Shown here piece after piece: positions 13,249 through 40,294 of a stretch of DNA of 46,418 nucleotides. The stretch's first letter is position 1; every line of letters starts with the position of its first letter. Below the pieces are notes generated by a model, which saw nothing but the letters and a program-made list of their open reading frames with translations, made no database searches and had not been told where the DNA came from. The position numbers and the translations under genes were made by a program. Source of the stretch: a virus; IMG/VR virus record IMGVR_UViG_3300040809_000068, positions 1-46,418 of that record; one strand, given 5' to 3'.

Positions 13249-13593
13249 ATGGCAAACTCATTCAAATCAAAAACGGACACGGCGATAGGAACATCAGCCG
13301 CTACCGTTTACACATGCCCATCCTCGACAGAGACCACGATTATTGGACTGACCGTTGCTAACATTGTGACAAGTCAAATCGAGGTTGATGTCCAGTTGGA
13401 TGCAAGCACCAGAACATCGGGCGCACAGGATAGCGTGTATGTCATCAAGAATGCACCAGTACCTGTTGGCTCGTCACTGGTTGTTATCGGTGGCGACCAG
13501 AAGGTTGTCATGGAACCGGGAGATACATTGAAGGTTACCAGCAACACAGCATCGTCTGCTGATGTTGCGGTGTCACTTCTGGAGATTACCTAA
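13249..13593 (+). CDS. Putative tail/virion protein (114 aa)
   Basis: A 114-residue all-beta protein (TSAATVYTCPSSTETTIIGL, VDVQLDASTRTSG, LVVIGGDQKVVMEPGDTLKV, VAVSLLEIT). The layout matches many small virion proteins found next to phage fibre genes. I see no catalytic motif. It is separated by four bases from the previous gene and shares one base with the long fibre that follows. Confidence 0.65.
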   Translation: MANSFKSKTDTAIGTSAATVYTCPSSTETTIIGLTVANIVTSQIEVDVQLDASTRTSGAQDSVYVIKNAPVPVGSSLVVIGGDQKVVMEPGDTLKVTSNTASSADVAVSLLEIT

Positions 13594-16521: not shown

Positions 16522-16530
16522 GGAGTATCC

Positions 16531-16752
16531 ATGTCTCAGAATAATGTAATCACAATCAACGGTAAGGAATACGAAGAGTCAAACCTTGAACCGACTCAGA
16601 AGTACCTTATCCAGCATGTCCGTGACCTTCAGGCGAAGGCGGGACAGTTGCGGTTCCAGTTGGAACAGGTCCAAGTATCACTTGACCACTTCACGAAAGA
16701 ACTCATCGCCTCTGTCGAAGCGGAAGGCGAGGACAAGGCAGAGTCTGCCTAG
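16531..16752 (+). CDS. Small helical protein, DUF6447-like
   Basis: A 73-residue protein with a beta start (NVITINGKEYEESNLEPTQK) and a coiled coil (YLIQHVRDLQAKAGQLRFQL). The 'ItInGkeY...dL....k' opening followed by a helix is the DUF6447-type layout of small phage proteins beside fibre genes. Role unknown; a fibre-assembly accessory role is possible. The ribosome binding site AAGGAG is strong. Confidence 0.7.
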   Translation: MSQNNVITINGKEYEESNLEPTQKYLIQHVRDLQAKAGQLRFQLEQVQVSLDHFTKELIASVEAEGEDKAESA

Positions 16753-16762
16753 AGGATAACCA

Positions 16763-19261
16763 ATGGCATACATCGGTAAGACACCATCTCAGGCGGTGAG
16801 AAGCAGATACTTTTACACTGCGTCTGGGGGAGAAACATCATTCAGCGGCGCGGACGACAACGGCAATAGCCTTGTTTACACGGACGGTAACTATGTGGAT
16901 GTGTATCTCAATGGTGTCTTGCTGGTCGCCGGGTCAGACTACAATACTAATACGACAAACACAGTCGCAGGGGTTACCGCTGTAGCGGCCAGTGACATTG
17001 TAGAGGTTGTAGTCTACGACACATTCAGCGTGTTCGGCGGTGATGTCCTTGGCGACTTCACCATCTCTAACGGCAACTTCACAGCCAACAGCCTTATCTA
17101 CCCAACGGCTGACGGGACTTCAGGTCAGGTTCTGAAGACTGACGGTTCCGGCAATCTGTCCTTCGCAACAGTCAATACCAACTTGGTAGCAGACCTAACT
17201 CCCCAGTTGGGAGGGACGCTTGACGCCAATGGCAACAGCATCGACATGGGGACATACACCATTACCGATGCAAAGGTAGGACAGTGGGACACAGCATACG
17301 GCTGGGGTGACCACTCAACACAGAACTATGCCGTGACTACTGGCGACACTATGACTGGCGACTTAACATTCGGTGACGGTGTTAAGGCTGTATTTGGCTC
17401 TACCTCTGACGGCATTCAAATATACAACGAAGCCTCTGGTGACAAGCGGATTGTAGAGACAGGCTCTGGCAACCTGAAACTTCAGGCCGACAATATCTAC
17501 TTGCAAAACACGGCTGGCACCGCCAATCACCTCATTGGGATAACGGGCGCGGCTGTTACGCTTAACTACAATAACAACCCAAAGATAGCCACAACCAACA
17601 CAGGTGTCGATGTCACAGGCACAGTGACGGCTGATGGGCTGACGGTTGATGGTAATGCCACAATACAAAATACTGGCACTCCAACCTTAACATTAAGCGA
17701 CAGTGATGGCACGAATCAATATTTAAGATTTAGGCATAACGGCAATGAATCATATATTGATTCAAGGAATAACACGGGTCACGGTAATTTATATTTAGGT
17801 AGAACTGATGGGACTAGCAATTTACCTGCTATGAAGATTAGTTCAGGCGGCGATGTGTCGCTGTATGCGGATGATGGCACAACACAAGGCTTTTTCTGGG
17901 ACGCCTCCACACAGCGATTAGGGCTGGGAACAATCACGCCAGCGTCTGCTATCCAAATCTCTGGTTCAGATGCGGCTGGTGGCAGACTAGAGGTAACTAG
18001 AAGCGGCGTTAGTATGTATGTGGGTAGCACTGGTGGGGCTGGCTATATACAAACCCCCGGCGCACATTCTTTGGAATTTTATACAAACGGAACACCGCGG
18101 CAAACCATCTCATCAACTGGTTATCCTAGATTTATTGGTAACGGTGATGGCTATGCGTATCTTGAGATAGACACAAATACAGCCGATAAAGGTCAGTGGC
18201 GTTTTCAAGTAGATTCTAATCCAGCAACAGCAAAGTTTTACCTTCAAGATTATTCTGGCGGTGCGTGGAATACTAATTTGACGGTAGACCAAAACGGTCA
18301 GTTAGGTTTAGGAATTGAACCAGACCGCAAACTGCAAATAAAATCTACTGTGAATAATCCGGCTAACACAACAATAGGGCTTGCACCATCTACAAACGAC
18401 ACTGTTCAGGGCGGTCTAGGTGTTGGTTCTGGAGGTATTCTTAGTGTAAACGCTGTCAACACAGTTCAATTTAGAGTTGGAGGGGCTGATGGTGATGGCG
18501 CAAGCGAGGTTGCTAGGATTGATTCGTCAGGTAATGTTGGCATCGGCATAGTTCCCGGAAGTGCAAAATTATTTGTTGAAGGTGGCCAAACAATCCTACG
18601 AAATAACCACACCACCACAAGTTTAAGCGGAAACACAGATAAGACTGCATTTCCACACGCCCTGTCGGTGGCTAACGATAGTGGTGGTAGCACCACCAAT
18701 CTTGCGTCAATCGGTTTTTCGGTAGGCACAACAAGTTCTGTTTCAAACGGTGCTATTGTTGGACATAGCACTGCCGCTGGCACAATGGATTTGGCCTTTT
18801 ACACAGAGTCATCGAATGTAATCGCTGAACGGATGCGGATTGATAATACTGGCCGTGTCACGATGCCTTATCAACCGTTTTTTAGTGCTTACAAAAACGG
18901 GAATCAGGCTTTGTCAGCGCACACGCCAACAAAAATTACCTCTTGGTCTGTGCTGTATAATGTTGGAAGCGGTTGGGACGCCACCAACAACAGGTGGACA
19001 GCCCCGGCGGCGGGTTATTATTTAATCCATGTTTGCGCCCAAGCAAGTGTTCTGGGCGGTCTTCATGTGAGGTTGGATGTCAATGGGTCTGCGGGTTGGA
19101 ATGGTGACGCATACCTTGATGGCGGCGATGTAACTGGCCTTAACAATACTTATTTTGCAAACCTTTCCGCAAACGACTATGTGGACTTTTATTGTTATCT
19201 AACCTCCGCTGGAACCATTACCGCCAACCGAACAAGGTTTAGCGTGGTTAAGTTGGCATAA
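16763..19261 (+). CDS. Long tail fibre with C1q-like C-terminal domain
   Basis: An 832-residue fibre. The N-terminus (AYIGKTPSQAVRSRYFYTAS, then YVDVYLNGVLLVAGSDY) is the typical virion-attachment domain of marine phage fibres. It is followed by a TPQLGGTLDANGN module and a shaft of repeated beta segments such as GTPTLTLSDSDGTNQYLRF. Residues from about 700 to the end (FFSAYKNGNQALSAHT, NRWTAPAAGYYLIHVCAQ, RTRFSVVKLA) resemble a C1q/TNF-like jelly roll, a trimeric module that can bind surface polymers. No S74 signature is present, so maturation must differ from that of the fibre at 13593. The DNA of the middle part, about 17660-18350, is visibly richer in A+T than its flanks, suggesting an exchanged module. 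Confidence 0.85.
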   Translation: MAYIGKTPSQAVRSRYFYTASGGETSFSGADDNGNSLVYTDGNYVDVYLNGVLLVAGSDYNTNTTNTVAGVTAVAASDIVEVVVYDTFSVFGGDVLGDFTISNGNFTANSLIYPTADGTSGQVLKTDGSGNLSFATVNTNLVADLTPQLGGTLDANGNSIDMGTYTITDAKVGQWDTAYGWGDHSTQNYAVTTGDTMTGDLTFGDGVKAVFGSTSDGIQIYNEASGDKRIVETGSGNLKLQADNIYLQNTAGTANHLIGITGAAVTLNYNNNPKIATTNTGVDVTGTVTADGLTVDGNATIQNTGTPTLTLSDSDGTNQYLRFRHNGNESYIDSRNNTGHGNLYLGRTDGTSNLPAMKISSGGDVSLYADDGTTQGFFWDASTQRLGLGTITPASAIQISGSDAAGGRLEVTRSGVSMYVGSTGGAGYIQTPGAHSLEFYTNGTPRQTISSTGYPRFIGNGDGYAYLEIDTNTADKGQWRFQVDSNPATAKFYLQDYSGGAWNTNLTVDQNGQLGLGIEPDRKLQIKSTVNNPANTTIGLAPSTNDTVQGGLGVGSGGILSVNAVNTVQFRVGGADGDGASEVARIDSSGNVGIGIVPGSAKLFVEGGQTILRNNHTTTSLSGNTDKTAFPHALSVANDSGGSTTNLASIGFSVGTTSSVSNGAIVGHSTAAGTMDLAFYTESSNVIAERMRIDNTGRVTMPYQPFFSAYKNGNQALSAHTPTKITSWSVLYNVGSGWDATNNRWTAPAAGYYLIHVCAQASVLGGLHVRLDVNGSAGWNGDAYLDGGDVTGLNNTYFANLSANDYVDFYCYLTSAGTITANRTRFSVVKLA

Positions 19262-19273
19262 CAGGAGTAACAA

Positions 19274-19564
19274 ATGCCTAGCATTACAATAGAAATTACA
19301 GACACCGAATTAAAGTGTATGGAATACGCGGCACTCAGCCCTCAAGAGTGGGCAGACAACGCAGTAACAAACCGCGCCAGAATTGCTGGAAATGACATCG
19401 TTGCAAAACTGGTATCGCATTGTAACGAAAACGAAATCGCACTCGCAGTTGGCCGTGATGCACAGGTTGCACAAGCCTTTGAGTTGGGTGTGGTTGACAC
19501 AGCGGCAAACACCCAAGCCGCATTTGAAGCCGCGCAAGCGGCGCAGGAAATTCCTACGGAGTAA
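19274..19564 (+). CDS. Small acidic helical protein after fibre 2
   Basis: A 96-residue protein: ITIEITDTELKCMEYAALSP, then QEWADNAVTNRARIAGNDIV, and an Ala/Glu-rich tail (AAFEAAQAAQEIPTE). The phrase 'i..tdtE.k.l.....sp.eW..n...nrar.a...iv' is recurrent in small proteins near marine phage fibres. I infer a chaperone or attachment role for the adjacent fibre. AGGAG lies six bases before the ATG; the gap to the next fibre is three bases. Confidence 0.7.
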   Translation: MPSITIEITDTELKCMEYAALSPQEWADNAVTNRARIAGNDIVAKLVSHCNENEIALAVGRDAQVAQAFELGVVDTAANTQAAFEAAQAAQEIPTE

Positions 19565-19567
19565 CGG

Positions 19568-21865
19568 ATGTCACGGGCAAGAGACTTAGCAGACAGCGCA
19601 GATAAAGACATAGCCGGAACCCTGACGGTTGACGCTATCACTGCGTCTGGAACAATAGCGGCTAACTCCTATACAGGGGACGGCTCTAGTCTCACGGGTA
19701 TTAACACCGACCTTGTGGCAGATACAACGCCACAGCTTGGCGGCAATCTCGATACCAATGGCAACGACATCAATTTTGGCGACAACGACAAGGCCGTGTT
19801 TGGTGCTGGGTCTGACTTGCAGATTTATCATAATGGTACACAAAGCATTATTGAAGATGTAGGCACTGGACCACTACGCATTAGGTCAAACTCCATTTCA
19901 ATAGAAAATGAGTTAGGCACTGAAACGATAAGTGCTTTAACGCAAGACGGTGCGGTTATTATTTACTACGATGGTTCGCCAAAACTCGTCACCACCTCTA
20001 GCGGCATTGATGTCACTGGCAACATTACAGTATCTGGTACTGTAGACGGACGCGATGTGGCAACAGATGGCAGTAAACTTGACGGCATTGAATCTGGTGC
20101 AACAGCCGACCAAACTGCTAGTGAAATACTGACGCTGATTAAGACTGTTGATGGCAGTGGTTCAGGTCTAGACGCTGACATGCTGGATGGATATTCACGA
20201 GACTATTATAGGCAGACTGTCAACAGCACAAAGATTAACAGCACCTACAACCTTGATAATCTATCGGATGATGGCTGGTACTCATGGACATCAAGCAATC
20301 CAACAAATAGTCCGTGGGGCAGTTATGCAAATTTATTGCAGTTGTATGATGGCTCTCAAAAGATTCAACTTGCTTTTGGTAGTGCTAGTATTGGCCGACT
20401 TGCAGTACGCAGAGCAGATTCTGGCACTTTCTATGATTGGGCCAATTTCTGGAGTGAGGATAATGACGGGTCAGGTTCTGGCCTAGATGCTGATTTATTA
20501 GATGGCGTTGAGGGTTCAAATTATTTACGCAGTAACACCAGCGACACCTTTAACGGCATTCTTACAGTTAACGACAGTTGGGACTATCAAATTGAATTAA
20601 CATCTCCAGACACTTGGACGGGCATCAAGTTTAACGATAGCAACTCCAATAGCGATGTAATATGGCACAATGGAAACAACGGCACATTTGCTATCGGTGG
20701 TGGTGGCTCCAATGTTTCTGGCAAAAAACTTCATATTGATGGCGGGACCTCTATTGGTTCAGGCTTTGATGGCACGGCAGTCCCCACGAATGGCCTTTAT
20801 GTCCAAGGGGATATAAAGACAAACGGAGACATAACAATATCCGGTGCCGGAACATTGCGTGATGTAACAGGTGAATATGGTTCAATAGAAGTTGATGGCG
20901 GCGCAACCAATAATTGGGAGGGTTATAGCATCGGTGGTCAAGTGGTGTTTATGACCGATGGTAGCGCGGCTGGAATTTATAATGACTATAACAACCAATG
21001 GATGATAAGAGCTGAATTAAACGGAGAAACGGCACTGCGTCATGCTGGCTCTGAAAAACTCGCCACCACCTCTAGTGGTATTTCGGTAACAGGAAACATA
21101 TCCCTGACCGATGTCCTCTTGCTAGACCAGAACGCATCTAACCATTCCTCAACGACTGAAGGTGCTTTGTATTACAATACAGCAGACGATGCTATTCGGG
21201 TTTACGCTGGGGGAAGGTGGAACAACCTGTCAATGCTTCCAGCTGTAACTCCAGCGGCACTGAACTTTATGAATCACAACTACACAAGAAGTTCATACAC
21301 TGGGCAGGATGGATACACACGAACATACGGTAAGTTAACAAGCCCAACTCAAACATATGCTGGAAATACATTTGCCACCGCATTTGACGGTGCGTCAAAC
21401 CATGTTCTGGTGTTGAGGTTCTTAGCGTCTTCGGCGGCTTACATTGGTCTTGGTGTTTCTATCGCATCATCAATCACAGACGCACAAGCAGACAACAACC
21501 CCGGTAGTAGTTATTACGGATTAGGTGGTGACTGGACGGGTGCTTCTGGCGTAACCCACTATGGTGGATACTTTAATAGTTCCTCTACAGTTCCAACTCA
21601 CACCACTACAGACGGGTATGTTTATATTTATACTGAAGGCTCTGGGGCTTCAAGGACCCTGCAAATGAAGTTCTCCGCAGTATACTCAAGCGATTTCCTA
21701 AATACTGGCACTGAGTTGCAAGCTGGGGGTGACACACCCTCTGGTGGAACCAGAATTACTCAATCAATACTTCCAATCACCATTGGGACAAATGACCTTG
21801 CCTTGGCCATTGGTGAAGCATCAGACACCTACGAATGGCGAATTGAAAGATACGGGACATACTAA
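19568..21865 (+). CDS. Long tail fibre 3
   Basis: A 765-residue fibre. It begins MSRARDLADSADKDIAGTLT, then repeats the GDGSSLTGINTDL...TPQLGGNLD module and the KLVTTSSGIDVTGN unit seen in the first fibre. There follow the phrases GSGLDADMLDGY and GSGLDADLLDG that flank a putative sugar-binding insertion (NLDNLSDDGWYSWTSSN). The second half has a further KLATTSSGISVTGN unit and ends in a beta domain (SILPITIGTNDLALAIGEAS) that I do not recognise. No S74 domain is present. It differs in codon use between segments, as expected for mosaics. GGAG lies seven bases before the ATG. Confidence 0.83.
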   Translation: MSRARDLADSADKDIAGTLTVDAITASGTIAANSYTGDGSSLTGINTDLVADTTPQLGGNLDTNGNDINFGDNDKAVFGAGSDLQIYHNGTQSIIEDVGTGPLRIRSNSISIENELGTETISALTQDGAVIIYYDGSPKLVTTSSGIDVTGNITVSGTVDGRDVATDGSKLDGIESGATADQTASEILTLIKTVDGSGSGLDADMLDGYSRDYYRQTVNSTKINSTYNLDNLSDDGWYSWTSSNPTNSPWGSYANLLQLYDGSQKIQLAFGSASIGRLAVRRADSGTFYDWANFWSEDNDGSGSGLDADLLDGVEGSNYLRSNTSDTFNGILTVNDSWDYQIELTSPDTWTGIKFNDSNSNSDVIWHNGNNGTFAIGGGGSNVSGKKLHIDGGTSIGSGFDGTAVPTNGLYVQGDIKTNGDITISGAGTLRDVTGEYGSIEVDGGATNNWEGYSIGGQVVFMTDGSAAGIYNDYNNQWMIRAELNGETALRHAGSEKLATTSSGISVTGNISLTDVLLLDQNASNHSSTTEGALYYNTADDAIRVYAGGRWNNLSMLPAVTPAALNFMNHNYTRSSYTGQDGYTRTYGKLTSPTQTYAGNTFATAFDGASNHVLVLRFLASSAAYIGLGVSIASSITDAQADNNPGSSYYGLGGDWTGASGVTHYGGYFNSSSTVPTHTTTDGYVYIYTEGSGASRTLQMKFSAVYSSDFLNTGTELQAGGDTPSGGTRITQSILPITIGTNDLALAIGEASDTYEWRIERYGTY

Positions 21866-28385: not shown

Positions 28386-29384
28386 ATGGGTTCTTTTTGT
28401 AAGTCGGGTAGTTCAACTACCACACAAACCACAGACATACCTGACTATATTAAAACGCCACTCAAGGAGAATCTTGATGTCGCGTCTAACCTAGTTAAAC
28501 AGCCATACCAGTCTTACACTGGCCCACGCATTGAGGGCTTTACGCAAGACCAACTTGACGCGATGAACGACATTCGCGCAATGATGGGTACTGGTCAGTC
28601 TGACCTTAACGCGGCGATGGCTGGTATTATGGGTCTGTCCCCCGTAACCACACAGAATGTCAACGCTTCAACATTCGACTCCGCAACAGCCGCGCAGTAT
28701 ATGAATCCTTACACAGACAATGTTCTGGACAAGGCAAGACAACGCATCTTTGATGCTGAAGATATTGCCGCGCAAAAGCGCGCCGCTGGTCAGGTAGCCG
28801 CTGGTGCGTTTGGCGACAACTCTCGCCGCTTCATTGAGAACGCCGAAGCGCAGTCTAACATGCAAGACCGCCTCGCTGACATGGAAGCAAAGCAACTGGC
28901 AAACGCATACTCAGAAGCGCAGAAGGCTTATGCCACTGACGCCAAGATGGACTTGACTGCACAGCAACTTAATCAGGCTACTGACCTCGCTGGCCAGAAA
29001 GTTGCTGGCTCTCAGGCCATTGCTAACGCACAGGGTATTGCTGGTCTTGTTGGTGCTGGACAGGGCCTTGGCTTCGACCAAGCGAATGCGCTTATGCAAA
29101 TTGGTTCTGCCAACCAGCAAATGGGTCAGGCTTCTAAAGACCTAGCGTACTCAGACTTCAAAGAACAACAGGCATATCCATACCAGCAAGTTGGTTTCAT
29201 GGCAGACCTTCTTCAGGGTGCGCCTATGGGTACTATCACCACGATGACACAGCCAACGCCGTCTCCGTTCCAGTCTATGGCTGGCTTGGGTCTTGCTGGT
29301 CTTGGCTTGTACGGACAGATGGGCGGCTTTAGCCCATACGGTTTTGGTGGGGTTAACCCAATGACTGGCAACCCTTACGCTTAA
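28386..29384 (+). CDS. DNA ejection / internal virion protein (P22 gp7-like)
   Basis: A 332-residue Ala/Gln-rich helical protein. It includes YSYTGPRIEGFTQDQ-like text (PYQSYTGPRIEGFTQDQLDA), FDSATAAQYMNPYTDNVLDK, and AAGQVAAGAFGDNSRRFIEN, a set of phrases common to podovirus ejection proteins. The C-terminal 40 residues are glycine-rich and hydrophobic (GLGLAGLGLYGQMGGF), suitable for membrane insertion. It belongs to the group that leaves the capsid first and forms the channel across the envelope. GGAG precedes the ATG, and 10 bases separate it from the next virion gene. Confidence 0.82.
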   Translation: MGSFCKSGSSTTTQTTDIPDYIKTPLKENLDVASNLVKQPYQSYTGPRIEGFTQDQLDAMNDIRAMMGTGQSDLNAAMAGIMGLSPVTTQNVNASTFDSATAAQYMNPYTDNVLDKARQRIFDAEDIAAQKRAAGQVAAGAFGDNSRRFIENAEAQSNMQDRLADMEAKQLANAYSEAQKAYATDAKMDLTAQQLNQATDLAGQKVAGSQAIANAQGIAGLVGAGQGLGFDQANALMQIGSANQQMGQASKDLAYSDFKEQQAYPYQQVGFMADLLQGAPMGTITTMTQPTPSPFQSMAGLGLAGLGLYGQMGGFSPYGFGGVNPMTGNPYA

Positions 29385-29394: not shown

Positions 29395-31809
29395 ATGATA
29401 AATCCGGCACAATTCCAATCAGTTCTAGGTAAGGTTAACGATAACCAGTTGATGGAGATGCTGAAGCGTCCCGATAAAATCCCTACACAGTTTGTTGTTG
29501 CCGAGATTAACCGCCGTCAGGCAATGCGTCAGGGCGCAAAAGCACAGCAAGTGGCTATGGCAAACAGAACTCCTGTCATGCCTCAGGCTTCTCAGCAAAT
29601 GCCACCAATGGGACGGCCTCTACCCCAGAAGCAACAAGCCCCTCAACCGCAAGGGATGTATGATGGTGGCCTACCTCTCCCCAAACCAACGCTTGGCGAG
29701 AGAAACAAGAACCCACTAAATATTCGTCCCAACTCTGACTTCTTTGGCTATGCGGGGCAGAACGATGGGTATGCTGTTTTTGACAGTGACCTTGCTGGCT
29801 TACGCGCTGGCGCGGTACTAGCAGACTCATACGCCAACATGGGTATAGATAATGTAAATGACTTTATTGACCGCTATGCACCAGTTGGGGACAACTCATC
29901 CGCCTCTAACGCCAACTACAAGCGACATGTTGCTGACGCATTGGATGTTGGTCTAGCGGATAAGATTGACTTTACAGACCCAGATGTGAAGAAGCGTCTC
30001 ATGAGGGCGCAGATTACATTTGAAAATGGGCGCAACAATTACTCTGACGACATGATTGACGAGGCCATTACTCTTGCAAAGGATAAAGAAAACAATCCTT
30101 TTGGCGTAACAGCGCGGAGAGTTAGCACAGTTAATCCTAACTCTCAGACATCTTCCCGCCCTAAAATCTTTGATACGATTGACCAGTTAGCACAGTCCGG
30201 GGACCGGGCAAGTCTACAAGCATTAGCCACTGACCCGTCAGTGATTGACACTTATGGCAAGGATGCAGTCCTTTACGCTAGAAACGCGCTTGGCAGGATG
30301 ACTGCAAACAAACAGCCTCGCAGTGTCATGGGAGACCTTGATGTTCAGCAAGGCATCGCGGCTGGCAAACGCATCAGCGATATGGAAGACCGATACGGCT
30401 ACAATGTAGATGACTTGGGAAATGCACCGACATTCAAGCGCGAGACAAACCCAGCTAAGTTGGCAAACCAAGACCAGCTATCCCGTGTTACACGAACTAC
30501 CAACGCAACAAGGCCGGACAATGGTCTCTATAGCCTGAACAACCCTGCGTATATGCAACGCTTGCAGGATGATGCAAAGCGATATGACGACAGATACGGC
30601 GATAGTAATGACGATTTGCTCGGTAACACCACAAAGGAAAAAACCCTCTTCGACAGAGCGATGGATAACATAGAGAAAGCCAAATCCCGCCCCGGACCGG
30701 GTGCGGACCCACTGAACCTTGCTGGAAAAGGTGGCAAGGGAACTGGTATAACAAAAGACACATTTCCGTCTAACCCATATATTAGCATGGGTGCAGATAT
30801 TCCAGCAAAGGATGAAAACAAAACTGGATACAACTCAGAAAATGATTATGGCTTGGGTTACTACGGTGATATTGGTGATACCAAGCCAATCAATCCAATT
30901 ATAGGTGCTGGAAACAGGAAGGCAGAACAGTTTGGTGAACGCGCCACTTATGAGGCTACCCTCAAGGCCACAGGCAACAACAATGCCGCTGACGCATTGA
31001 GTAGTGCGGTTGGTGATGCCGCTAATGACAAGAGTGGTTTGGGTGACATGAACCTCAAGCAGATTGGCGACCTCGGCTTCTTCAAGACAGAGATTGGAAA
31101 TCTTCGTGATGACCAAAAGAAACTACTGGATGCCTACAACGATGGCACAGCCGAACTAATTACCAAGCGTAAGGAACTTATGGATATGATGGATACGCAA
31201 CGCCGTACCCCTCAGAACATGATGTTCCAAGCATTGATTGACTTTGGTCTGGAATTGGCGGCAAGCCCAGAAGCTAACTTCATGAGGGCTGTGGCCAAGG
31301 CTGGGCAGAAAGGCATCTCTTCTTTCCGCAACCTCGGCAAGCAAGACCAAGAACAACTCTTCCAGAAATACAAGATGGCTTATGACATCGCGGCCACAGA
31401 GTTTGAACACAAGATGAAGGGTCAGAAGATGGCTTTGGATATGAATGTCCAACTGCTGAATGTTGCTGACACACTGTCTCAGGTAGGGCTTCGCTCTTCT
31501 CAAGCGGCATACTATGACCGCAGTGATGGCAAGGGTAGCAAAGGCACATTGAAGCCATCTACATCCACATACAACGCCGTACTGGGTATGTTTAAGGACA
31601 GACTTGCCGACCCAACATCTCGTCTAGACCTTGCTGTTGAACTTGGCCTTATCAAGCAAGATGAGGCAGAGAATATGCAGGACTACCCGTCTACAGCGTT
31701 GATGCCAATCCTCTCTCAACTCGCACTACAACAGGCAACCATAGCCGGGGGTCTAACTGGTTCTAACACAGAAGAGCCAGCGTCCATCGGCGATATTCTG
31801 AATCAGTAG
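29395..31809 (+). CDS. Virion-associated peptidoglycan hydrolase / ejection protein
   Basis: An 804-residue protein. After a Gln/Met/Pro-rich N-terminus, residues 100-225 hold a lysozyme-like domain: R103-NKNPLNIR, GYAVFDSDLAGLRAGAVLAD, DFIDRYAPVGDNSSASNANY and VKKRLMRAQITFENG. The 'rn.NPgNir...F....G.rA......Y......ti...i..yaP..dN....Y' series is that of cell-wall-degrading domains in phage ejection proteins. The C-terminal half is helical with ALIDFGLELAASPEANFMRA and KYKMAYDIAATEFEHKMKGQ. It would locally open the murein during DNA entry, as T7 gp16 and P22-type proteins do. It is distinct from the endolysin at 41095. Confidence 0.8.
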   Translation: MINPAQFQSVLGKVNDNQLMEMLKRPDKIPTQFVVAEINRRQAMRQGAKAQQVAMANRTPVMPQASQQMPPMGRPLPQKQQAPQPQGMYDGGLPLPKPTLGERNKNPLNIRPNSDFFGYAGQNDGYAVFDSDLAGLRAGAVLADSYANMGIDNVNDFIDRYAPVGDNSSASNANYKRHVADALDVGLADKIDFTDPDVKKRLMRAQITFENGRNNYSDDMIDEAITLAKDKENNPFGVTARRVSTVNPNSQTSSRPKIFDTIDQLAQSGDRASLQALATDPSVIDTYGKDAVLYARNALGRMTANKQPRSVMGDLDVQQGIAAGKRISDMEDRYGYNVDDLGNAPTFKRETNPAKLANQDQLSRVTRTTNATRPDNGLYSLNNPAYMQRLQDDAKRYDDRYGDSNDDLLGNTTKEKTLFDRAMDNIEKAKSRPGPGADPLNLAGKGGKGTGITKDTFPSNPYISMGADIPAKDENKTGYNSENDYGLGYYGDIGDTKPINPIIGAGNRKAEQFGERATYEATLKATGNNNAADALSSAVGDAANDKSGLGDMNLKQIGDLGFFKTEIGNLRDDQKKLLDAYNDGTAELITKRKELMDMMDTQRRTPQNMMFQALIDFGLELAASPEANFMRAVAKAGQKGISSFRNLGKQDQEQLFQKYKMAYDIAATEFEHKMKGQKMALDMNVQLLNVADTLSQVGLRSSQAAYYDRSDGKGSKGTLKPSTSTYNAVLGMFKDRLADPTSRLDLAVELGLIKQDEAENMQDYPSTALMPILSQLALQQATIAGGLTGSNTEEPASIGDILNQ

Positions 31810-31816: not shown

Positions 31817-34800
31817 ATGGCTACAGTAAGAATGCCTGATGGTCGTCTCTATGACACCACTGGCTACTCACAAGAAGATATTGACAAGGCGCGAGGCATT
31901 ATCCTTGAGAGAATGACTGGTCAATATGGGATTGAGGAAGAACAAGGTTTCTTTGGCCGCACTGGCGACCTACTCGAACTCGGTGGCCGTGAATTATTAA
32001 GTTCAGGCTCAGAGGGTATAGCCACCCTCTCCGATATGGCGTTTGGAGATAGCACTGATTCATTTGAACAGGGTCTGCAATCCTTTGCCCAAGGTCAACG
32101 GGACGCCGCGTCAGAAATAGAGGGTATCAAGCCAATCCAAGAGGCAGAAGGCATCGGTGATGTCCTTACCTCTGCTGGCTCTTACCTTGTTCAGTCTATA
32201 CCTGAGATGGCAACAGTGTTTGCAGGAGCCGCCGCCGGACAGTTGCTTATACCAATTCCAATCGTTGGTGCCTTGGTTGGCGGTACACTTGCTGGCATTA
32301 TCCCTTTCCTTGGCCGCAACACTCAAGAGTTCAAAGAGGTTAATGGTCGCGCCCCAACCGCTGAAGAAGGTGTCGCGCTTTTAGGAACCGCCACTGTTCA
32401 GTCCGGCCTCAACACCCTTATCACACGACTTGTCCCGTTCAAGGGTAGCACACGCATCACCCCTAATATGATTAAGAAGGGTCTCGCTGGTACTGGTCTA
32501 GAGGGGTCTACCGAACTTTCACAAGACCTCTTGCAAGTTCTCGCCGCCAACAACTTTGACACCAGCGTCCTACAAGACCCAGATGTTCAGTACCGCCTGA
32601 CAGAATCCTTCCTTGCTGGTGCGGCAACTGGTGGCGGTATCGGTGTAACAACAGCACCATTCACAACCGAAACTCCCCCCTCTCCTATTGACCCAGAACT
32701 CGCCACAGCCGCGCAAGATTTTGTCACTGGTCGTCCCCGTCAAATAGAAGGCCGTGAAGCCGTACCTCAGATAGGCTTTGACGGTGGCGTAGAAACACCA
32801 GAAACGACTGTTGGTGAGGTGACATCCCGTGATGGTACACGCCGTCCTGCAATACTGACGGGCAATCAACAGTCTGCGCTTGAGTCTCGCCCAGAGACAG
32901 AGAACCCTCAATACGATGCCATGCGTTCAACGCTTGATGAGGCAATGAAACGGGCGCAAGCAGAAGGCAGAGACCCAAGAGAAGTATTCAACGACCCAGA
33001 GGTGGCTAAACAATTAGAAGACGCTGTTACTGGTGCGTCTACCACACCTATCAACATCGGACCATCAGCCGCCTCTCGCGCACAGCAAGAGACATCGCAA
33101 CTCACAGGCGAACAGATACTTGAGTTTGCCCGTAATAACAGGTCAGACCAAGTTATTGCCGACACTCTCAAGGCTGGCATCCCACTTAAGAGAAAAATTG
33201 AACTTCTGACCAGACGGTTTGCCGAACTAAATATCTCTCCCTCTACTGCACAAGAGGCTGGAGAAACTGGCTCTCCGATACTGCGTCCAACAGCGGAGAT
33301 GGCACAAGACCCAGAGGGTTTTGCTGACCGTGGAGTAGAGGCTGGAACCGTAGAGGCAACAGACATCGCTGGTCAGCCCCGTATGGAGTATGACGGCGAG
33401 ATGGGGCCACAACCTCTTGATGATGAGGGCGTGCAGAGGACTGTATCCCGTGAGGCCGTAGAGCCTGACGACAATGAGGGTCTACTGCGAACCCTACGCG
33501 CTATGGGGACAGAGGAGTCACAGCGCACAGCGGAAGATGGCAGTGTAGACCAAGCGGCAACAGACCAAAACCTGAACCGCTACAGCGGTGCGGTTAATTA
33601 CCTCAACGCGAGACTGAAGGAACTTTCTAACCGTGGTACACAGGGTAAGAAAGTTGCCGATAGTATACGCGGTCAGGTAATGAATGACCAGTCAATGGGT
33701 GCTAACGAGATTGTCGGTGCCTTCATGGCCGCTGACGCCATTGTTGACACACTTGGCGGTGCTGGTGTTGACGGCGGCGTTGACATCAACTTCCTCAAAT
33801 CCCTGCAAAACAAAAAGGGACACGCACTAAACGGCCTCAAGAGTTACAAGCCCACCACTGACGGCAAACTTCAGGCCGTCATCGACCTTGCGTTCTACAA
33901 CGACAGCCCAACACGAGTGGCACAGACTGCACAGCATGAGGCTTTCCATGTCCTTCAGGACTTCTACGAACAGCACAGCCCATCTGACGCAAAACTTCTT
34001 TCCAGTGTCTACAAATTAAAAGACGGTAAAGTTAACTACAAAGCACTGCCATCGTCTGTACGCAAACTGTGGAAAAAGTATGCACCACAGGAACACAAGA
34101 TGGCACTTGATGGAACCCTTCCTGTAATGGAAAGCCCATCTGAATTTCAGGCTATGACCTACGAGTTTTACCAACGCGCTAGACAGGCCGGAGATGAGAA
34201 CCCGCTGTCTGGTGCGTTTGGAAAATACTTTGACTTTGTCTCCCGCTTCCTACCCCGCCTCGCAAACTCACTTAGAGGCATGGGCTTCCAGACGGCAGAA
34301 GATGTATTCACTCGTGCGGCCAAAGGAAAGACTGCGCGTAAGATATCTGGCCGGGAAGTTACACCCCGTTCAGAAACTATTGCCAGTGAGGAGTCACGAG
34401 TTGTTCCAGTGCGGCGGGACAACGCGGGTATGCAAGGAAGGTTTGGAGTTGCTAACCCAGCAGAGGGTGGTAACTATGTGCAACTTGACGAGAACTTCAA
34501 CGCTGTTGCTGACATTACTGGCCAGACATTCACTGGCGCGACAATCATCATTGATGAAAAGGGTCGTCCTGACATGCAAGTCAGCGATGTTGAGACAGCC
34601 CTCACACCATCCACAAACACGACAGGTCAAGTTGGCCGTGTAGTCAACTTAGTTAACCCAAGTAAGTCCACAAAGAAACGGGCAAAGTGGGAGTGGCTTG
34701 ACAGAGACAACGAGACAGACCCAATTCACACGATTGTTTCTGTTACATCCACAAACAATCTATCCAGTGAGAATGGTGGCGCAACAAAGATTAAGAACCC

Positions 34801-37800
34801 AAGTGGAGACCATCTCTATGCGTTGGCTGTCAACATGGATGGTCCTGCTAAACTTGCAACATTCCCTGACTCCCCATCGGAGCCACGCCTTCGCCCTGTA
34901 ATGTATGCGGAACAGATGGTTAAAGGCCCTGTTATTGGCCGCATCAGAATGAAGGGACGCGATGGTGGTAAAGAACACCCAGTCTACGAATACATCAACT
35001 TGCGTAAGGAAGACCAAGTTGACAAGGCCGCATCGTCTGTTGGCTCGGAAGAAAGCCTACGCGCTATATTCGATAACTACCAGCAAGTTCTCGATAGTAC
35101 GGATATACAACCTAGTGGGTTTACTAAAATCTACTCCTACCAAGAATTTAAGTACGAAGCAGTATCACCCCCAGTATATGATTTCTATAGACTCAATGAT
35201 GCACAGTCGGTAGCGGACGCTGTAGTAGACATATTCCAGAACAAGCCTGACTCGTCAGAGGCTAAACTTTTAAGAAGTTACATGCCAGCAGACTTCTTTA
35301 AGTTTCTTAAAGAGGGTGAGATTGGTCAGGCAAAAGATGAGGTAATGTTCTTCAATGACATCATTAGTTTTGGTGATGCAGAAGCCAATATCGCAACAAT
35401 GCATGTCATTCGTTCTGCAAACTTGGCTTACGATGCGGCTAACAACGCACTCAGAAAGGTTGACACAAGGGGGTATCTACCGTCATCGGACAACATCCCG
35501 TTCATCCTCATGGTTAAGACCACTGACGGCGACATCTCCTTTGAAAAATTTGAACATCAACACTACGACCTTAACAACGGTATGCCGTACATGGCAGACG
35601 CCATCAAAGCCGCCAAGCCAATACTGAAAAAGATTACGCCGGACAGCCCAAAGCGTTTTAGTAGAGACCTCACTGTTATAATGGATAACCAGCAGTTCTA
35701 TATTGAGGACTTGCCTGATTCAGTCAGAGGGCTTGACCAATATAAAGACAAGGCTGGAGACTCAGTCAACTTTATGAATGTGGACTTCAAAGTGGATGAC
35801 CGCTTTGATGCTATGACTGGTGATGTTCCCATTACCCCACAGGCACTGTTTGAAATGTTTGGCAGAGTTGTGGCATCTGTCCGCAAGGGGCTGGACTACG
35901 CAAGAGATAACGGCATACGCGTTGACGGTGTAAAGTTTGCTGGCAACAGTGAACAGAAGCAACGCATTTATAATAAGTTGGCTAACTCTGAACGCTTCAA
36001 GCAGGAGTTCCCTGAACTTGGCGATGCTGTAAAATACTACGACTCATCCTTTGTTGTTAAGAAGCCGGAGAAAACTGAACCTGTCCAAATGGATATGTTT
36101 AACGAGGCGTCCATTCGTCTTGACCGAGTTCAAGACCTGAATGATGTCGCACCCATGAACAGAAACAACAACGCCATTGCTGACCAGTTCGGCTTTGATG
36201 AGGGTATGCGTAAGCGTTCCTCAATGGATGTTCTTTATAATCCAAACTTTGACCCACAACTTCCTGATGCAGACAATGCTAAAGGTAAGGATGGGAAGAA
36301 GCGCACCGCCGGACGAAATGTATCTGAGGCTGGGCGCATGTTGCACAACAGAAGTCTCAGTGTTCTAGAAGAACCCCTGAACTATACCAACAGAACACCA
36401 GAGAGTGACGAAAAACTGTCCCGCATTCTTGCGGCAGAGACAGTGGCGGCACGACAAAACAACCCAGAGAACAATGCAACCAACTGGTACACGGCAAATA
36501 TTCAAGCGGCCATTGATTCTGTCGCTGAGATGTACCCAGAGGTAGCCACCGACAGAGAACACCGTTCCGCATTTTCTCTTGCACTTGCTATAACATCACA
36601 AGGTATTGTTGTGTCCCGTAACTCACGCCTTGGTCTGGCGGCTTATGAGTTCTGGAGAGACAACGGACGCTTCCCAGTATTTGGTGAGGGCAAGTCATCT
36701 CCTGCGATTGAGAAAAACTTTATTAACGCAAACATATTGCTTGATGTGTTCAAGGAAAAAAACGAGTCATTCTATCAGTTCCTAGACACCCAGTTTACAG
36801 TTGGCGAATTGAAGCAAGCACTTCAAGACATCGGGATTAAAGTCGGTAAGGGTGGAGTTACTCTTAGCGGTGAACAAGTTAACACAAATGTTTATGGCTC
36901 ATTTATGTTTGGCCCAAAAATTGGGCAGGGCTTTTACCAAAACCTCATGGGTAACTATGACCCAATCACCATTGACCTTTGGTTCATGCGTACATGGGGA
37001 CGCTTGACTGGCACACTTGTTGGAAACAAGAAGGCTTTTGAAAACAACCTTCAGGAGATGCGCGTTGAGATGCGTAATGAAGGTGTGCAGTTTGATGAAG
37101 ATTTGTTTGGCACGGATGAACAATACACATTCGATTTGATTACAGAACAAAACGAAATCGGCGAGGCTTACTACGATAGCCAGCGTGACGCTGGTGTACC
37201 TAAGGCAGAAATCAAAAAGACACAGTTGATGCGGTCTGCCGCCAACGCCCTTACCAATGGGGTAAAGCCTAAAGACACACCATCTGGTGGTCAACAGCGT
37301 TCTTTCATACGAGATATTGTGAGTCGTGCAAGGGAGATACTTGCAGAGAACGGCCTCAATCTTACATCAGCAGACATGCAAGCAATCCTCTGGTATCCAG
37401 AGAAAGACCTGTATGCAAAACTTACAAACGGTGGTTTGGAAGAAAGGCTTAACGAGTCATACGAAGATGCATTTAAGGAGATTATGAATGGCAAAACAGG
37501 GTTACGCTCCGTGGACGGAACAGCCCGACCAGACTCTGTCCGAGCAACTATCGACAAAGCAGATGCAGAGTCTAGCGGAAAGGCTGGTCGAACTATACAA
37601 GGCGAAGAAGAGTCAGTCCGATTCGGAGCAGGAGACTACAGAACAACCGATGGCATGAGGGCTATCATGGCAGACCCGAATGCGCGGTCTGTCAGTGCCA
37701 AGGTTTACAACTTCATTCGCAAGTTCACCACAAAGGAAGGGCGTGCGGCATCAAGAGAAAAGTTCGTTAACGAGTTTATCCACGGACTTGCACCAATCGC

Positions 37801-40294
37801 ACGCAGAGAACTTGAACTAAACTATCGAAGGACTGGAGAACGCCGCTATCTTCCATTCGCACAAGGTGCGTTCAAGATTACAGAGATTGCACAACAACTC
37901 TCCGGCAAGATGGAGATGTTCACAAAGTTGGGTGCGCCTAAACTTAACGCAGACGGGACGGTCTCCATCGTTGAAGGCACGCGGGGTTTACGGGATATCT
38001 TTGAACCTATTGGAACTGGAGATAAGTATGCCAAGTTCCAGATGTATGTGTATGCACAACGCGCACAGCGTCTAAAGGCAGAAGGCAGAGAGAACCTACT
38101 GACCGATGAACAGATTGCAGAGGGTATGCGGTACGGCGCAGAGAACCCTGAGTTCAACGAGGTATTCAATCAATACAAAAACTTCAATGAAAGTTTGATG
38201 CAGTTCCTTCAGGACACTGGCGCGATTGACCAAGAGACTAAACAAAAACTTATTGGCACTGCCGACTATGTACCATTCTACCGTGTCATCGAAGAAGAAC
38301 ACTACACTGAAGGGTTCATGGGTCAGGTTCGCAGGGCAAGCACTTACGCGCAGAACACCACATCTGCATTCGATAACCCAGACGCCCGTATCAAAGATGT
38401 TCTTCGCAAACTAAAGGGTGGCGAGGAAAAGATTGGCGACCTGTATGAAAATGTATTTCAAAACACACAAGCCATTGTCTCTGCCGGATTAAGAAACCTA
38501 GCCACACAACGCACCGTAGGTGTCATTGAGGAGTTAAAGGCTACTGGATTTTATGACGGTGTGCAGGCCCCTCGCCGCATCTCTTCGACTGAAGCGCAAA
38601 ACAACAACAACCACTTCACTCTGAGGGAAAATGGCAAGACCGTGTTCTACGATGTCGGGTCTGACGGCGAACTAATCACGGCGATGAGAACATTCACGCC
38701 AATGCAGATGAATGGCTTCCTTCGCACCATGCAACAAATTGGCCGCTTCTTCCGTAACATGATTACGATTACCCCATCATTTATGGAAGCCAACCTTATC
38801 CGTGGTGATATGGCTGGTGTCGTAACGGTGGACGCACCTCTCCGTCCGATGGTTGATACAATGATTGGCCTGAAGAATGCGCTGGCTGATGCTGAAACAG
38901 TCCAAGAGATGAAGACAATCGGTGGCTTTGGTGGTTACACATTCGGCGAAAGCAACACAGAATTTGCCAAAAAGATGAAGCGGTTTTACCGCAGACATGA
39001 AGGTTACACTATTGTGGACACCCCACAGAAACTGTCCGACATGTTCATGGGTCTTGTAGACAAGGTGAATACGGTGGGTGAGGCAACGGAAATGGCAACA
39101 CGAGAAGCCATCTTCCGCAGAATGTTGGAACAGGGTGCTGAGAAAGGCGATGCCGCATATGAGGCACTCAACCTTATCAACTACTCTCGCAAGGGGAATC
39201 CGCAAGGTGGAGCCGCGCAAACCTTTGCGATGCTACTTCCCCTAGTTCCCTTCCTCAACGCCCGTGTGCAGGGCTTATATCGCACAGGAACGGCGTTTGG
39301 GACAGAGGCTAATGCCAAGCGGACAGCGATGAAGGGGCTTACCCTTATGGGTCTGTCGATGGGGCTGTATGCAATCATGTCCCAAGAGGATGACTGGGAA
39401 CAGGAGCCGCTGTATCGCAAGTTGAATTACTACATCATCTACGCTGGCGATAAGAAGTTCCTGATACCAAAGCCGTTTGAGATTGGCGCGGTGTTCTCAA
39501 CAATACCTGAGGTGTTCCTTGACGGCATCCGTCAGAGGGATGGTGAGTATGTTGCTGAAGCGGTCAGTCAGATATTCCTAAACAACTTCAGTTTCAATCC
39601 GATACCACAGGCCGTCCGTCCTATCGTAGAGGTTGCTACCAATCAGGACTTCTTCCGTGGCAGAGAACTGGAAAGTCTTGGGGTTCGCGGCTTGCCTACA
39701 GCAATGCGTTCCTATTCAACCACATCTGAGTTTGCAAAACTCATGGGTGATGCAACCGCCCTCGCTGGTATCAGCCCGATTGAGTTTGAACAGTTGGTGA
39801 ACGGCTACCTTGGTTCTCTTGGTGGGCTGTTCCTTGGTGGTATGGACAGCATACTTGGCACATTTGGCACAATCCCATCGAAGCCAGCGGGACTGTTTGG
39901 CAGTGGCTTGAGTGATGTCGCCGCCAGAAACCTTGGCCTCACAAGATTTGTTAAGGAACGGGGCAATGACCCCGCAAATAGATTCCTCTCTGAGTTCTAC
40001 GAACTCAAGCGGGAAGCGGATGAAATCAATCGTGGAATAAACAGGCTCCGTGAAGAGGGCAACTATGAAGAAGCGATGGAGATGCGCCGCGACAACCGTT
40101 CACTACTTGGCGTAAGGAAGCAACTCAACAAGAAGTACCAACAGTTGAACGAACTTAATGACAGGATTCAGGGAATCAAAACTAGCGGCATGTCGCCTGA
40201 AGCGAAGAAGTCTAGAATTGACCAACTCATCCGTCAAAGAAACCGTCTTGTCTCTGATATGGCGAGACTAAAGAAAAGAATAAGGGACGACTAA
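31817..40294 (+). CDS. Giant polyvalent virion/ejection protein (2825 aa) with zincin site
   Basis: At 8.5 kb it takes 18 per cent of the window. Residues 110-180 include glycine-rich hydrophobic stretches (FAGAAAGQLLIPIPIVGALV, GGTLAGIIPFLG) fit for membrane insertion. A metalloprotease-like site follows: HEAFH at 707-711 with a possible third ligand E776 in SEFQA. Residues of about 1550-1720 resemble the DUF7178-type domain (NWYTANIQAAIDSVAEMYPE, SQGIVVSRNSRLGLAAYEFW). The region from about 1950 to 2500 is an LPD38-like polyvalent-protein domain, ending in LINYSRKGNPQGGAAQTFAM and LVPFLNARVQGLYRTG. The last 100 residues are a coiled coil. Giant proteins of this sort are injected with the DNA. 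The exact functions of its parts are inferred. Confidence 0.85.
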   Translation: MATVRMPDGRLYDTTGYSQEDIDKARGIILERMTGQYGIEEEQGFFGRTGDLLELGGRELLSSGSEGIATLSDMAFGDSTDSFEQGLQSFAQGQRDAASEIEGIKPIQEAEGIGDVLTSAGSYLVQSIPEMATVFAGAAAGQLLIPIPIVGALVGGTLAGIIPFLGRNTQEFKEVNGRAPTAEEGVALLGTATVQSGLNTLITRLVPFKGSTRITPNMIKKGLAGTGLEGSTELSQDLLQVLAANNFDTSVLQDPDVQYRLTESFLAGAATGGGIGVTTAPFTTETPPSPIDPELATAAQDFVTGRPRQIEGREAVPQIGFDGGVETPETTVGEVTSRDGTRRPAILTGNQQSALESRPETENPQYDAMRSTLDEAMKRAQAEGRDPREVFNDPEVAKQLEDAVTGASTTPINIGPSAASRAQQETSQLTGEQILEFARNNRSDQVIADTLKAGIPLKRKIELLTRRFAELNISPSTAQEAGETGSPILRPTAEMAQDPEGFADRGVEAGTVEATDIAGQPRMEYDGEMGPQPLDDEGVQRTVSREAVEPDDNEGLLRTLRAMGTEESQRTAEDGSVDQAATDQNLNRYSGAVNYLNARLKELSNRGTQGKKVADSIRGQVMNDQSMGANEIVGAFMAADAIVDTLGGAGVDGGVDINFLKSLQNKKGHALNGLKSYKPTTDGKLQAVIDLAFYNDSPTRVAQTAQHEAFHVLQDFYEQHSPSDAKLLSSVYKLKDGKVNYKALPSSVRKLWKKYAPQEHKMALDGTLPVMESPSEFQAMTYEFYQRARQAGDENPLSGAFGKYFDFVSRFLPRLANSLRGMGFQTAEDVFTRAAKGKTARKISGREVTPRSETIASEESRVVPVRRDNAGMQGRFGVANPAEGGNYVQLDENFNAVADITGQTFTGATIIIDEKGRPDMQVSDVETALTPSTNTTGQVGRVVNLVNPSKSTKKRAKWEWLDRDNETDPIHTIVSVTSTNNLSSENGGATKIKNPSGDHLYALAVNMDGPAKLATFPDSPSEPRLRPVMYAEQMVKGPVIGRIRMKGRDGGKEHPVYEYINLRKEDQVDKAASSVGSEESLRAIFDNYQQVLDSTDIQPSGFTKIYSYQEFKYEAVSPPVYDFYRLNDAQSVADAVVDIFQNKPDSSEAKLLRSYMPADFFKFLKEGEIGQAKDEVMFFNDIISFGDAEANIATMHVIRSANLAYDAANNALRKVDTRGYLPSSDNIPFILMVKTTDGDISFEKFEHQHYDLNNGMPYMADAIKAAKPILKKITPDSPKRFSRDLTVIMDNQQFYIEDLPDSVRGLDQYKDKAGDSVNFMNVDFKVDDRFDAMTGDVPITPQALFEMFGRVVASVRKGLDYARDNGIRVDGVKFAGNSEQKQRIYNKLANSERFKQEFPELGDAVKYYDSSFVVKKPEKTEPVQMDMFNEASIRLDRVQDLNDVAPMNRNNNAIADQFGFDEGMRKRSSMDVLYNPNFDPQLPDADNAKGKDGKKRTAGRNVSEAGRMLHNRSLSVLEEPLNYTNRTPESDEKLSRILAAETVAARQNNPENNATNWYTANIQAAIDSVAEMYPEVATDREHRSAFSLALAITSQGIVVSRNSRLGLAAYEFWRDNGRFPVFGEGKSSPAIEKNFINANILLDVFKEKNESFYQFLDTQFTVGELKQALQDIGIKVGKGGVTLSGEQVNTNVYGSFMFGPKIGQGFYQNLMGNYDPITIDLWFMRTWGRLTGTLVGNKKAFENNLQEMRVEMRNEGVQFDEDLFGTDEQYTFDLITEQNEIGEAYYDSQRDAGVPKAEIKKTQLMRSAANALTNGVKPKDTPSGGQQRSFIRDIVSRAREILAENGLNLTSADMQAILWYPEKDLYAKLTNGGLEERLNESYEDAFKEIMNGKTGLRSVDGTARPDSVRATIDKADAESSGKAGRTIQGEEESVRFGAGDYRTTDGMRAIMADPNARSVSAKVYNFIRKFTTKEGRAASREKFVNEFIHGLAPIARRELELNYRRTGERRYLPFAQGAFKITEIAQQLSGKMEMFTKLGAPKLNADGTVSIVEGTRGLRDIFEPIGTGDKYAKFQMYVYAQRAQRLKAEGRENLLTDEQIAEGMRYGAENPEFNEVFNQYKNFNESLMQFLQDTGAIDQETKQKLIGTADYVPFYRVIEEEHYTEGFMGQVRRASTYAQNTTSAFDNPDARIKDVLRKLKGGEEKIGDLYENVFQNTQAIVSAGLRNLATQRTVGVIEELKATGFYDGVQAPRRISSTEAQNNNNHFTLRENGKTVFYDVGSDGELITAMRTFTPMQMNGFLRTMQQIGRFFRNMITITPSFMEANLIRGDMAGVVTVDAPLRPMVDTMIGLKNALADAETVQEMKTIGGFGGYTFGESNTEFAKKMKRFYRRHEGYTIVDTPQKLSDMFMGLVDKVNTVGEATEMATREAIFRRMLEQGAEKGDAAYEALNLINYSRKGNPQGGAAQTFAMLLPLVPFLNARVQGLYRTGTAFGTEANAKRTAMKGLTLMGLSMGLYAIMSQEDDWEQEPLYRKLNYYIIYAGDKKFLIPKPFEIGAVFSTIPEVFLDGIRQRDGEYVAEAVSQIFLNNFSFNPIPQAVRPIVEVATNQDFFRGRELESLGVRGLPTAMRSYSTTSEFAKLMGDATALAGISPIEFEQLVNGYLGSLGGLFLGGMDSILGTFGTIPSKPAGLFGSGLSDVAARNLGLTRFVKERGNDPANRFLSEFYELKREADEINRGINRLREEGNYEEAMEMRRDNRSLLGVRKQLNKKYQQLNELNDRIQGIKTSGMSPEAKKSRIDQLIRQRNRLVSDMARLKKRIRDD

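What the first reader, a model, noticed from the sequence alone, without database searches (positions are those of the whole stretch)
31817..40294. 2825-residue injected-type protein combining a hydrophobic entry segment, zincin site and LPD38-like region
One gene takes 18 per cent of the window. The sequence shows glycine-rich hydrophobic stretches at residues 110-180, an HEAFH site at 707-711 with a candidate third ligand E776, a DUF7178-like region and an LPD38-like region. Known polyvalent proteins of large ejection systems carry effectors into the host with the DNA. A protease that reaches the host cytoplasm or periplasm at the moment of entry is a plausible early weapon against host defences. 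The protein is not an N4-type RNA polymerase as far as I can see.
Basis: partly seen in the sequence, partly recalled or inferred. Interest (0 to 1): 0.72.

Follow-up and report, generated by a model that had tools for sequence, protein, structure and literature searches.

The report
Giant multi-enzyme phage entry protein
A virus of bacteria carries one very large protein, probably packed in its particle and sent into the cell with its DNA, that holds a real zinc-protease site, an acetyltransferase-like fold and what looks like a DNA-repair enzyme domain; its kind is already known, but the DNA-repair-like part has not been described before in anything I could search.

Summary
One ORF at 31817-40294 (+) encodes 2825 aa with a hydrophobic Gly/Ala stretch (aa 131-167), a zinc site H707-E708-x-x-H711 with third ligand E776, a DUF7178-like region and a C-terminal LPD38 region. 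H707, E708, H711 and E776 are the only invariant residues in 17 diverse homologues and are kept in 36/36 rows of a wider alignment; AlphaFold2 gives the zincin core at pLDDT about 90. The protein belongs to the known class of phage polyvalent proteins: variable cargo before a constant LPD38 module. An LPD38 giant of similar gene order (Burkholderia podovirus JC1 gp69) is in virions by mass spectrometry. In that class self-processing is a better default for the zincin than attack on host defences. That assignment is suggestive, not proven: the hairpin segment alone is not significant and PDB searches did not find the fold. Verdict: new variant of a known kind.

The parts
31817..40294 (+). whole gene: 2825-aa polyvalent, probably ejected protein
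   Evidence: single ORF; GTAGG about 8 bases before the ATG
32207..32317 (+). aa 131-167, hydrophobic Gly/Ala stretch (candidate membrane or entry segment)
   Evidence: Kyte-Doolittle peak 2.13; similar stretches in relatives L018-L020, L097, L262
33614..34366 (+). aa 600-850, zincin-type metallopeptidase (MPTase) domain
   Evidence: alignment A4, A9; AlphaFold2 pLDDT about 90 with three strands, active helix, glutamate helix
33935..33949 (+). HEAFH 707-711, metal-binding histidines and general-base glutamate
   Evidence: invariant; inside predicted helix 698-720
34142..34144 (+). E776, third metal ligand
   Evidence: invariant; at the start of predicted helix 774-790
34526..35086 (+). aa 904-1090, all-beta domain ('v1'), unknown function, widespread in phage contigs
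   Evidence: A5; 167 candidate stretches encoding a relative in viral contigs; all-beta in the model
35558..36061 (+). aa about 1248-1415, GNAT-fold domain ('v2'); enzymatic activity not shown
   Evidence: Foldseek PDB: TacT3, KacT, TacT, AtaT, prob 0.75-0.99, E 0.017-0.2; strand/helix order of a GNAT
36299..37531 (+). aa 1495-1905, DUF7178-like domain, proposed HhH-GPD DNA-glycosylase-like
   Evidence: A7, A11; hhalign segments; diagonal ranks; all-alpha model
36917..36919 (+). K1701, candidate catalytic lysine of the HhH hairpin
   Evidence: invariant in 45 sequences
36974..36976 (+). D1720, candidate catalytic aspartate, N-cap of the next helix
   Evidence: invariant in 45 sequences; predicted helix starts at the next residue
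37379..37393 (+). Q1855-A-x-x-W1859, C-terminal motif resembling the end of OGG-type glycosylases
   Evidence: invariant; segment match to archaeal Ogg C-terminus P 3.9e-4
37859..40267 (+). aa 2015-2817, constant C-terminal LPD38 module (Pfam LPD38 itself aa 2524-2681)
   Evidence: model fits many viral large polyvalent proteins
28386..29384 (+). small DNA ejection protein (332 aa)
   Evidence: phrog_4287 DNA ejection protein, 2.3e-19; JC1 gp64 is also 332 aa and in virions
29395..31809 (+). 804-aa protein with a virion-type endolysin/tape-measure region (aa 98-235), partner ejection protein
   Evidence: phrog_873, 8e-25 and phrog_2276, 7e-16

Best explanation
The gene encodes a polyvalent ejection protein of a temperate podovirus-like phage. 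The C-terminal 800 residues (LPD38 module) are the constant part that builds the protein into the virion and ejection machinery; the N-terminal hydrophobic stretch probably helps membrane passage. Between them lie exchangeable cargo domains: zincin protease, beta domain, GNAT fold, and a DUF7178 domain that resembles an HhH-GPD DNA glycosylase with AP-lyase-type Lys/Asp. The most likely sequence is: packaging with the DNA, ejection at infection, cutting of the long chain by its own zincin during assembly or entry, and release of the acetyltransferase-like and DNA-acting domains in the host. Shown by sequence and predicted structure: the domain order, the zincin site, LPD38, the GNAT fold. Inferred by analogy: virion location and ejection. 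Inferred only: self-cleavage and the DNA-glycosylase activity.
For: Zinc ligands invariant in 36/36 rows and in the right predicted elements: three strands, helix 698-720 with HEAFH, helix 774-790 beginning near E776. Foldseek's zincin-type hits (lethal factor prob 0.33, ulilysin 0.38) are weak but agree with the published link of this class to lethal factor. Gene order TerL, portal, coat, fibres, GNAT gene, 332-aa ejection protein, lysozyme-type protein, giant resembles JC1, whose giant LPD38 protein is the second-ranked virion protein. The LPD38 end is constant while the upstream part varies from about 220 to 2600 residues across 58 complete homologous ORFs, and zincin carriers are longer (p about 1e-4, uncorrected for kinship). 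The order MPTase - (v1) - (v2) - DUF7178 - LPD38 recurs in dozens of loci. HhH-GPD likeness: the N segment matches the Nth/MutY profile, P 3.7e-5, score 29 against a best of 13.8 in 34 background windows; the C segment matches the archaeal Ogg C-terminus, P 3.9e-4, 22.1 against 13.8; the Lys block ranks 24 of 86,658 diagonals with Ogg and the Asp block 27 of 84,744 with Nth; K1701 and D1720 invariant in 45/45.
Against: No virion proteomics for this phage. Self-cleavage sites are unknown; N4's zincin-bearing protein is packaged uncut (PMC5512222). The hairpin segment of DUF7178 is not significant on its own against either glycosylase profile, its N segment does not match the archaeal Ogg profile, PDB profile searches and Foldseek with the two-domain model found no glycosylase, and Pfam HhH-GPD does not match. 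The GNAT domain lacks an obvious R/Q-x-x-G-x-G/A acetyl-CoA motif, so it could be inactive. LPD38 giants without any HExxH exist (20 of 58), so the zincin is not needed for ejection as such.
Confidence: 0.62

Rival explanations
1. The zincin is itself an effector that, after entry, cuts a host protein such as a defence protein.
For: PMC5512222 lists this as a possibility for such domains. The protein is probably delivered at entry (by analogy).
Against: No host target or specificity signal found; the domain sits in the middle of a multidomain chain and occurs with longer cargo, which fits processing better. Its profile matched no solved protease by sequence.
Confidence: 0.17
2. The whole chain is a structural ejection-conduit protein; zincin, GNAT and DUF7178 domains serve assembly or are relics, with no enzyme action in the host.
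For: Other LPD38 proteins manage without these domains.
Against: Strict conservation of catalytic-type residues (36/36 zinc ligands; 45/45 K1701 and D1720) argues for selection on chemistry.
Confidence: 0.17
3. The DUF7178 domain is not a DNA glycosylase but an unrelated all-helical domain whose Lys, Asp, Gln and Trp are conserved for another reason (a rival to one part of the best explanation only).
For: The hairpin segment alone is not significant; no hit in Pfam HhH-GPD, PDB profile or PDB fold searches.
Against: The similar segments (N with Nth, Lys/Asp block with both, C with Ogg) lie in the same order in all, and two beat every background window.
Confidence: 0.42

Closest known systems
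Phage polyvalent proteins with zincin MPTase and LPD domains (Iyer et al. 2017, PMC5512222)
   Same: Giant chain with several unrelated domains, zincin with HExxH plus Glu on a second helix, LPD38 found only in phage-type members
   Different: The paper's text names no DNA glycosylase or base-excision domain, and DUF7178 has no mention in the paper library
DarB-like giant protein of Burkholderia podoviruses JC1/Bcep22 (gp69/gp75)
   Same: Last large gene after similar small ejection proteins; LPD38 near the C-terminus; in virions by mass spectrometry
   Different: 4515 aa; carries helicase/methylase-type and LT-like domains instead of the zincin-GNAT-DUF7178 cargo; there the transglycosylase-like domain is inside the giant, here a lysozyme-type region is in the neighbouring gene
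N4 virion RNA polymerase
   Same: Giant ejected phage protein with a zincin domain
   Different: No RNA-polymerase family match here
HhH-GPD DNA glycosylases (Nth, MutY, OGG)
   Same: Collinear N, Lys/Asp and C segments; Lys-Asp spacing 19 against 18 in Nth and archaeal Ogg
   Different: About 410 aa with long inserts, no significant hairpin match, not recognised by Pfam PF00730
GNAT toxins TacT/KacT/AtaT
   Same: Best fold matches of aa about 1248-1415
   Different: No sequence match; no antitoxin; acetyl-CoA motif not evident; GNAT folds are shared by many enzymes of other function

Membership tests
Phage polyvalent protein (Iyer 2017) | two or more unrelated enzyme-type domains in one large chain | tested here: met
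   zincin, GNAT fold; activities untested
Phage polyvalent protein (Iyer 2017) | encoded by a phage or mobile element, with LPD domains | tested here: met
   virus record; LPD38
Phage polyvalent protein (Iyer 2017) | delivered with the DNA at infection | not testable with these tools
   only by analogy with JC1 gp69
Zincin MPTase of polyvalent proteins | HExxH on one helix | tested here: met
Zincin MPTase of polyvalent proteins | third-ligand Glu on a following helix | tested here: met
   E776 invariant, predicted helix 774-790
Zincin MPTase of polyvalent proteins | three-stranded sheet before the active helix | tested here: met
Zincin MPTase of polyvalent proteins | protease activity | not testable with these tools
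   needs an assay
HhH-GPD DNA glycosylase | Lys and Asp of the bifunctional active site at the right spacing | tested here: met
   K1701, D1720, invariant 45/45, 19 apart
HhH-GPD DNA glycosylase | recognisable helix-hairpin-helix segment | tested here: inconclusive
   hhalign not significant; Lys block ranks 24 of 86,658 with Ogg but 2222 of 85,371 with Nth
HhH-GPD DNA glycosylase | match to the Pfam model or to solved glycosylases | tested here: not met
   so it is not filed as a member, only as a likely distant relative
GNAT acetyltransferase | GNAT fold | tested here: met
   Foldseek prob up to 0.99, E 0.017-0.2
GNAT acetyltransferase | acetyl-CoA binding motif | tested here: inconclusive
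   no obvious R/Q-x-x-G-x-G/A read in A6
N4-type virion RNA polymerase | single-subunit RNA polymerase domain | tested here: not met
   no match in Pfam, PHROGs, NCBIfam

The most novel reading that the evidence does not exclude
DUF7178 is a new branch of the HhH-GPD DNA glycosylase/AP-lyase superfamily, and these phages carry it into the cell at infection as part of a self-cleaving entry protein, so that a base-excision enzyme acts on host or incoming DNA at the first moment of infection, for example in counter-defence, damage repair or attack on the host chromosome.
Probability: 0.35. Interest if true: 0.74.

Novelty: new variant of a known kind. Interest (0 to 1): 0.5.

Why it matters
It gives a testable function to a domain family of unknown function (DUF7178) that recurs in dozens of giant phage proteins from metagenomes, and would add base excision to the known list of enzymes sent in with phage DNA. 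It also shows a clear plan, with a constant LPD38 end and exchangeable cargo, that lets such giants be read as delivery protein plus payload.

Tried and rejected
N4-type RNA polymerase: no family match. Zincin region in plasmids: only Rhizobium stretches at E 0.1 without HExxH and one short Azospirillum piece; the Rhizobium ones were treated as chance. PDB profile searches for LPD38, zincin and DUF7178: only chance-level or irrelevant hits. Foldseek PDB with the DUF7178+LPD38 model: noise, best E 0.27, probably because two domains were searched as one chain. The genome-contig scan gave one locus, in an archaeal MAG, so the host stays unknown. The A3 scan failed for lack of conserved stretches. 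Alignment A10 was discarded because split v2 rows misaligned; A9 was used. PADLOC hit PDC-M09B at aa 130-166 lies in the hydrophobic stretch and was taken as chance. Lytic relatives by terminase (023Pt_psg01, HTVC027P) hold 1386- and 1342-aa proteins in this slot, in which the LPD38, zincin and DUF7178 profiles found nothing, so they do not serve as a minimal form. AGOG family: only two sub-threshold matches, not usable as a profile.

Full report
WHAT IS THERE. The ORF at 31817-40294 (+) is a single 2825-aa reading frame, 18.3% of the 46,418-base window, which is itself a virus record. The surrounding genes are those of a temperate phage with a podovirus-like ejection block: large terminase 1059, portal 2586, coat 7609, fibres 13593-21865, a 603-aa virion structural protein at 24862, an acetyltransferase gene at 27921, a 332-aa DNA ejection protein at 28386, an 804-aa protein with a virion endolysin/tape-measure type region at 29395, the giant, a phage lysozyme at 41095, and on the minus strand an integrase, an exonuclease and a repressor. 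The nearest terminases are from marine phages 023Pt_psg01, DSL-LC04 and Pelagibacter HTVC027P/HTVC023P, at 52-57% identity. The window shows no tRNA and is shorter than those relatives (58-62 kb), so it may be a fragment.

C-TERMINAL CONSTANT MODULE. Pfam finds only LPD38 (aa 2524-2681, 5.8e-35). tblastn finds 54 named phages, all rows shown matching only within aa 1881-2821. An 11-phage alignment shows conserved blocks over 800 residues, and a viral-contig scan gave 581 confirmed candidate stretches with the limit reached. In 58 complete homologous ORFs the module ends the protein, while the part in front varies from about 220 to 2600 residues. AlphaFold2 on 65 rows gave pLDDT 86 for aa 1485-2680, and BFVD matches are large polyvalent proteins.

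ZINCIN. In 17 homologues the only invariant columns are H707, E708, H711 and E776; in the second alignment all 36 rows with the domain keep them, as HExxH and an E-x-x-A type motif. The AlphaFold2 model of aa 585-1478 has pLDDT about 90 over aa 585-800, falling towards 825; strands 656-660, 673-679 and 685-692 precede helix 698-720 (with HEAFH), and helix 774-790 begins two residues before E776. That is the published core of this class: three-stranded sheet, HExxH helix, Glu helix (PMC5512222). Foldseek lists lethal factor (prob 0.33) and ulilysin (0.38), weak but consistent. Pfam does not recognise the domain in this protein.

FUNCTION OF THE ZINCIN. The 2017 survey calls it the most common domain of polyvalent proteins and proposes processing of the chain as its main role, with host attack as one option. 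In the set here, LPD38 proteins with an HExxH in front of LPD38 are longer (median 2739 against 2281 aa, p 7e-5); this test is not corrected for kinship and the loci were chosen by similarity. I therefore prefer self-processing, as inference.

GNAT FOLD. The model region 664-831 (aa about 1248-1415) has the strand-helix order of a GNAT, and the best PDB matches are the tRNA-acetylating toxins TacT3, KacT, TacT and AtaT (prob 0.75-0.99, E 0.017-0.2). The Foldseek output does not print the aligned range; I place it here from the secondary structure. A CoA-binding motif was not evident, so activity is open.

DUF7178-LIKE DOMAIN. aa 1495-1905 is shared by 123 ORFs among the fetched loci (some loci overlap). 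Pfam DUF7178 matches this protein at E 0.018 and 15 of 45 relatives at E <= 1. Invariant residues in 45 sequences include G1699, K1701, G1703, F1706, N1709, D1720, W1722, R1725, R1729, Q1855, A1856, W1859 and E1862. The K1701-D1720 spacing of 19 suggested the Lys/Asp pair of HhH-GPD glycosylases (Nth K120/D138; OGG1 K249/D268, from general knowledge). I tested this with profiles made from E. coli nth and mutY plus archaeal HhH-GPD proteins and from 24 archaeal Ogg proteins. The N segment matches Nth/MutY at P 3.7e-5, score 29.0, against a best of 13.8 in 34 windows of other parts of the same giants. The C segment matches the Ogg C-terminus at P 3.9e-4, score 22.1, against 13.8. The hairpin segment is not significant in hhalign. 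In a diagonal ranking the Lys block is 24th of 86,658 with Ogg and the Asp block 27th of 84,744 with Nth; joint ranks are 21 of 74,074 and 25 of 72,853, and the leading diagonals printed are the C segment (Ogg) and the N segment (Nth) in the same order. Against it: no match in Pfam PF00730, PDB profile searches or PDB folds with the two-domain model. About ten segment comparisons were made, and the K/D positions were chosen after seeing the invariance, so the stated ranks are somewhat optimistic. I put homology at about 0.58.

VIRION AND DELIVERY. Not tested for this phage. In Burkholderia podovirus JC1, gp69 (4515 aa, LPD38 at 4195-4401) follows a similar set of genes, including a 332-aa protein and an acetyltransferase, and gave 51 unique peptides from CsCl-purified virions (PMC9144972). 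Several named relatives place the LPD38 giant after a run of smaller genes, annotated in HTVC034P as internal virion protein and in Palmer as peptidoglycan-degrading.

NOVELTY. The class, the zincin and LPD38 are known. DUF7178 has no paper in the library, the 2017 survey's text has no glycosylase, and searches for a virion-delivered phage DNA glycosylase found nothing relevant. The library lacks most subscription papers. I rate the whole a new variant of a known kind.

Noticed in passing
L097 (PBGS01000048.1): A contig binned in a MAG called Euryarchaeota encodes a close relative of this giant (65% over the LPD38 region). Probably a mis-binned phage contig, but an archaeal host was not excluded.
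   Followed up: partly
L328 (PQ492659.1), 6313-15690: Limnohabitans phage DC33 is filed as Inoviridae, yet it is 39 kb and has a 3125-aa protein with the DUF7178 domain; the taxonomy looks wrong.
   Followed up: no
window 34526-35086: The all-beta domain v1 (aa 904-1090) has 167 confirmed candidate stretches in viral contigs, often directly before DUF7178; function unknown.
   Followed up: partly
L009 2413-10104: Prochlorococcus phages P-SCSP1 carry a related zincin in a 2563-aa protein without an LPD38 match.
   Followed up: partly
L013, L014: Thalassomonas BA3 and Vibrio VvAW1 giants have a different HEMAHYLD-type HExxH, probably another zincin clade.
   Followed up: no
L022 216-10394: A 3391-aa relative has three HExxH-type motifs, one being HEGRH.
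   Followed up: no
L264 36196-40356 and L265 31892-35920: In the nearest phages by terminase, the giant's slot holds 1386- and 1342-aa proteins with no detectable LPD38, zincin or DUF7178 match.
   Followed up: partly
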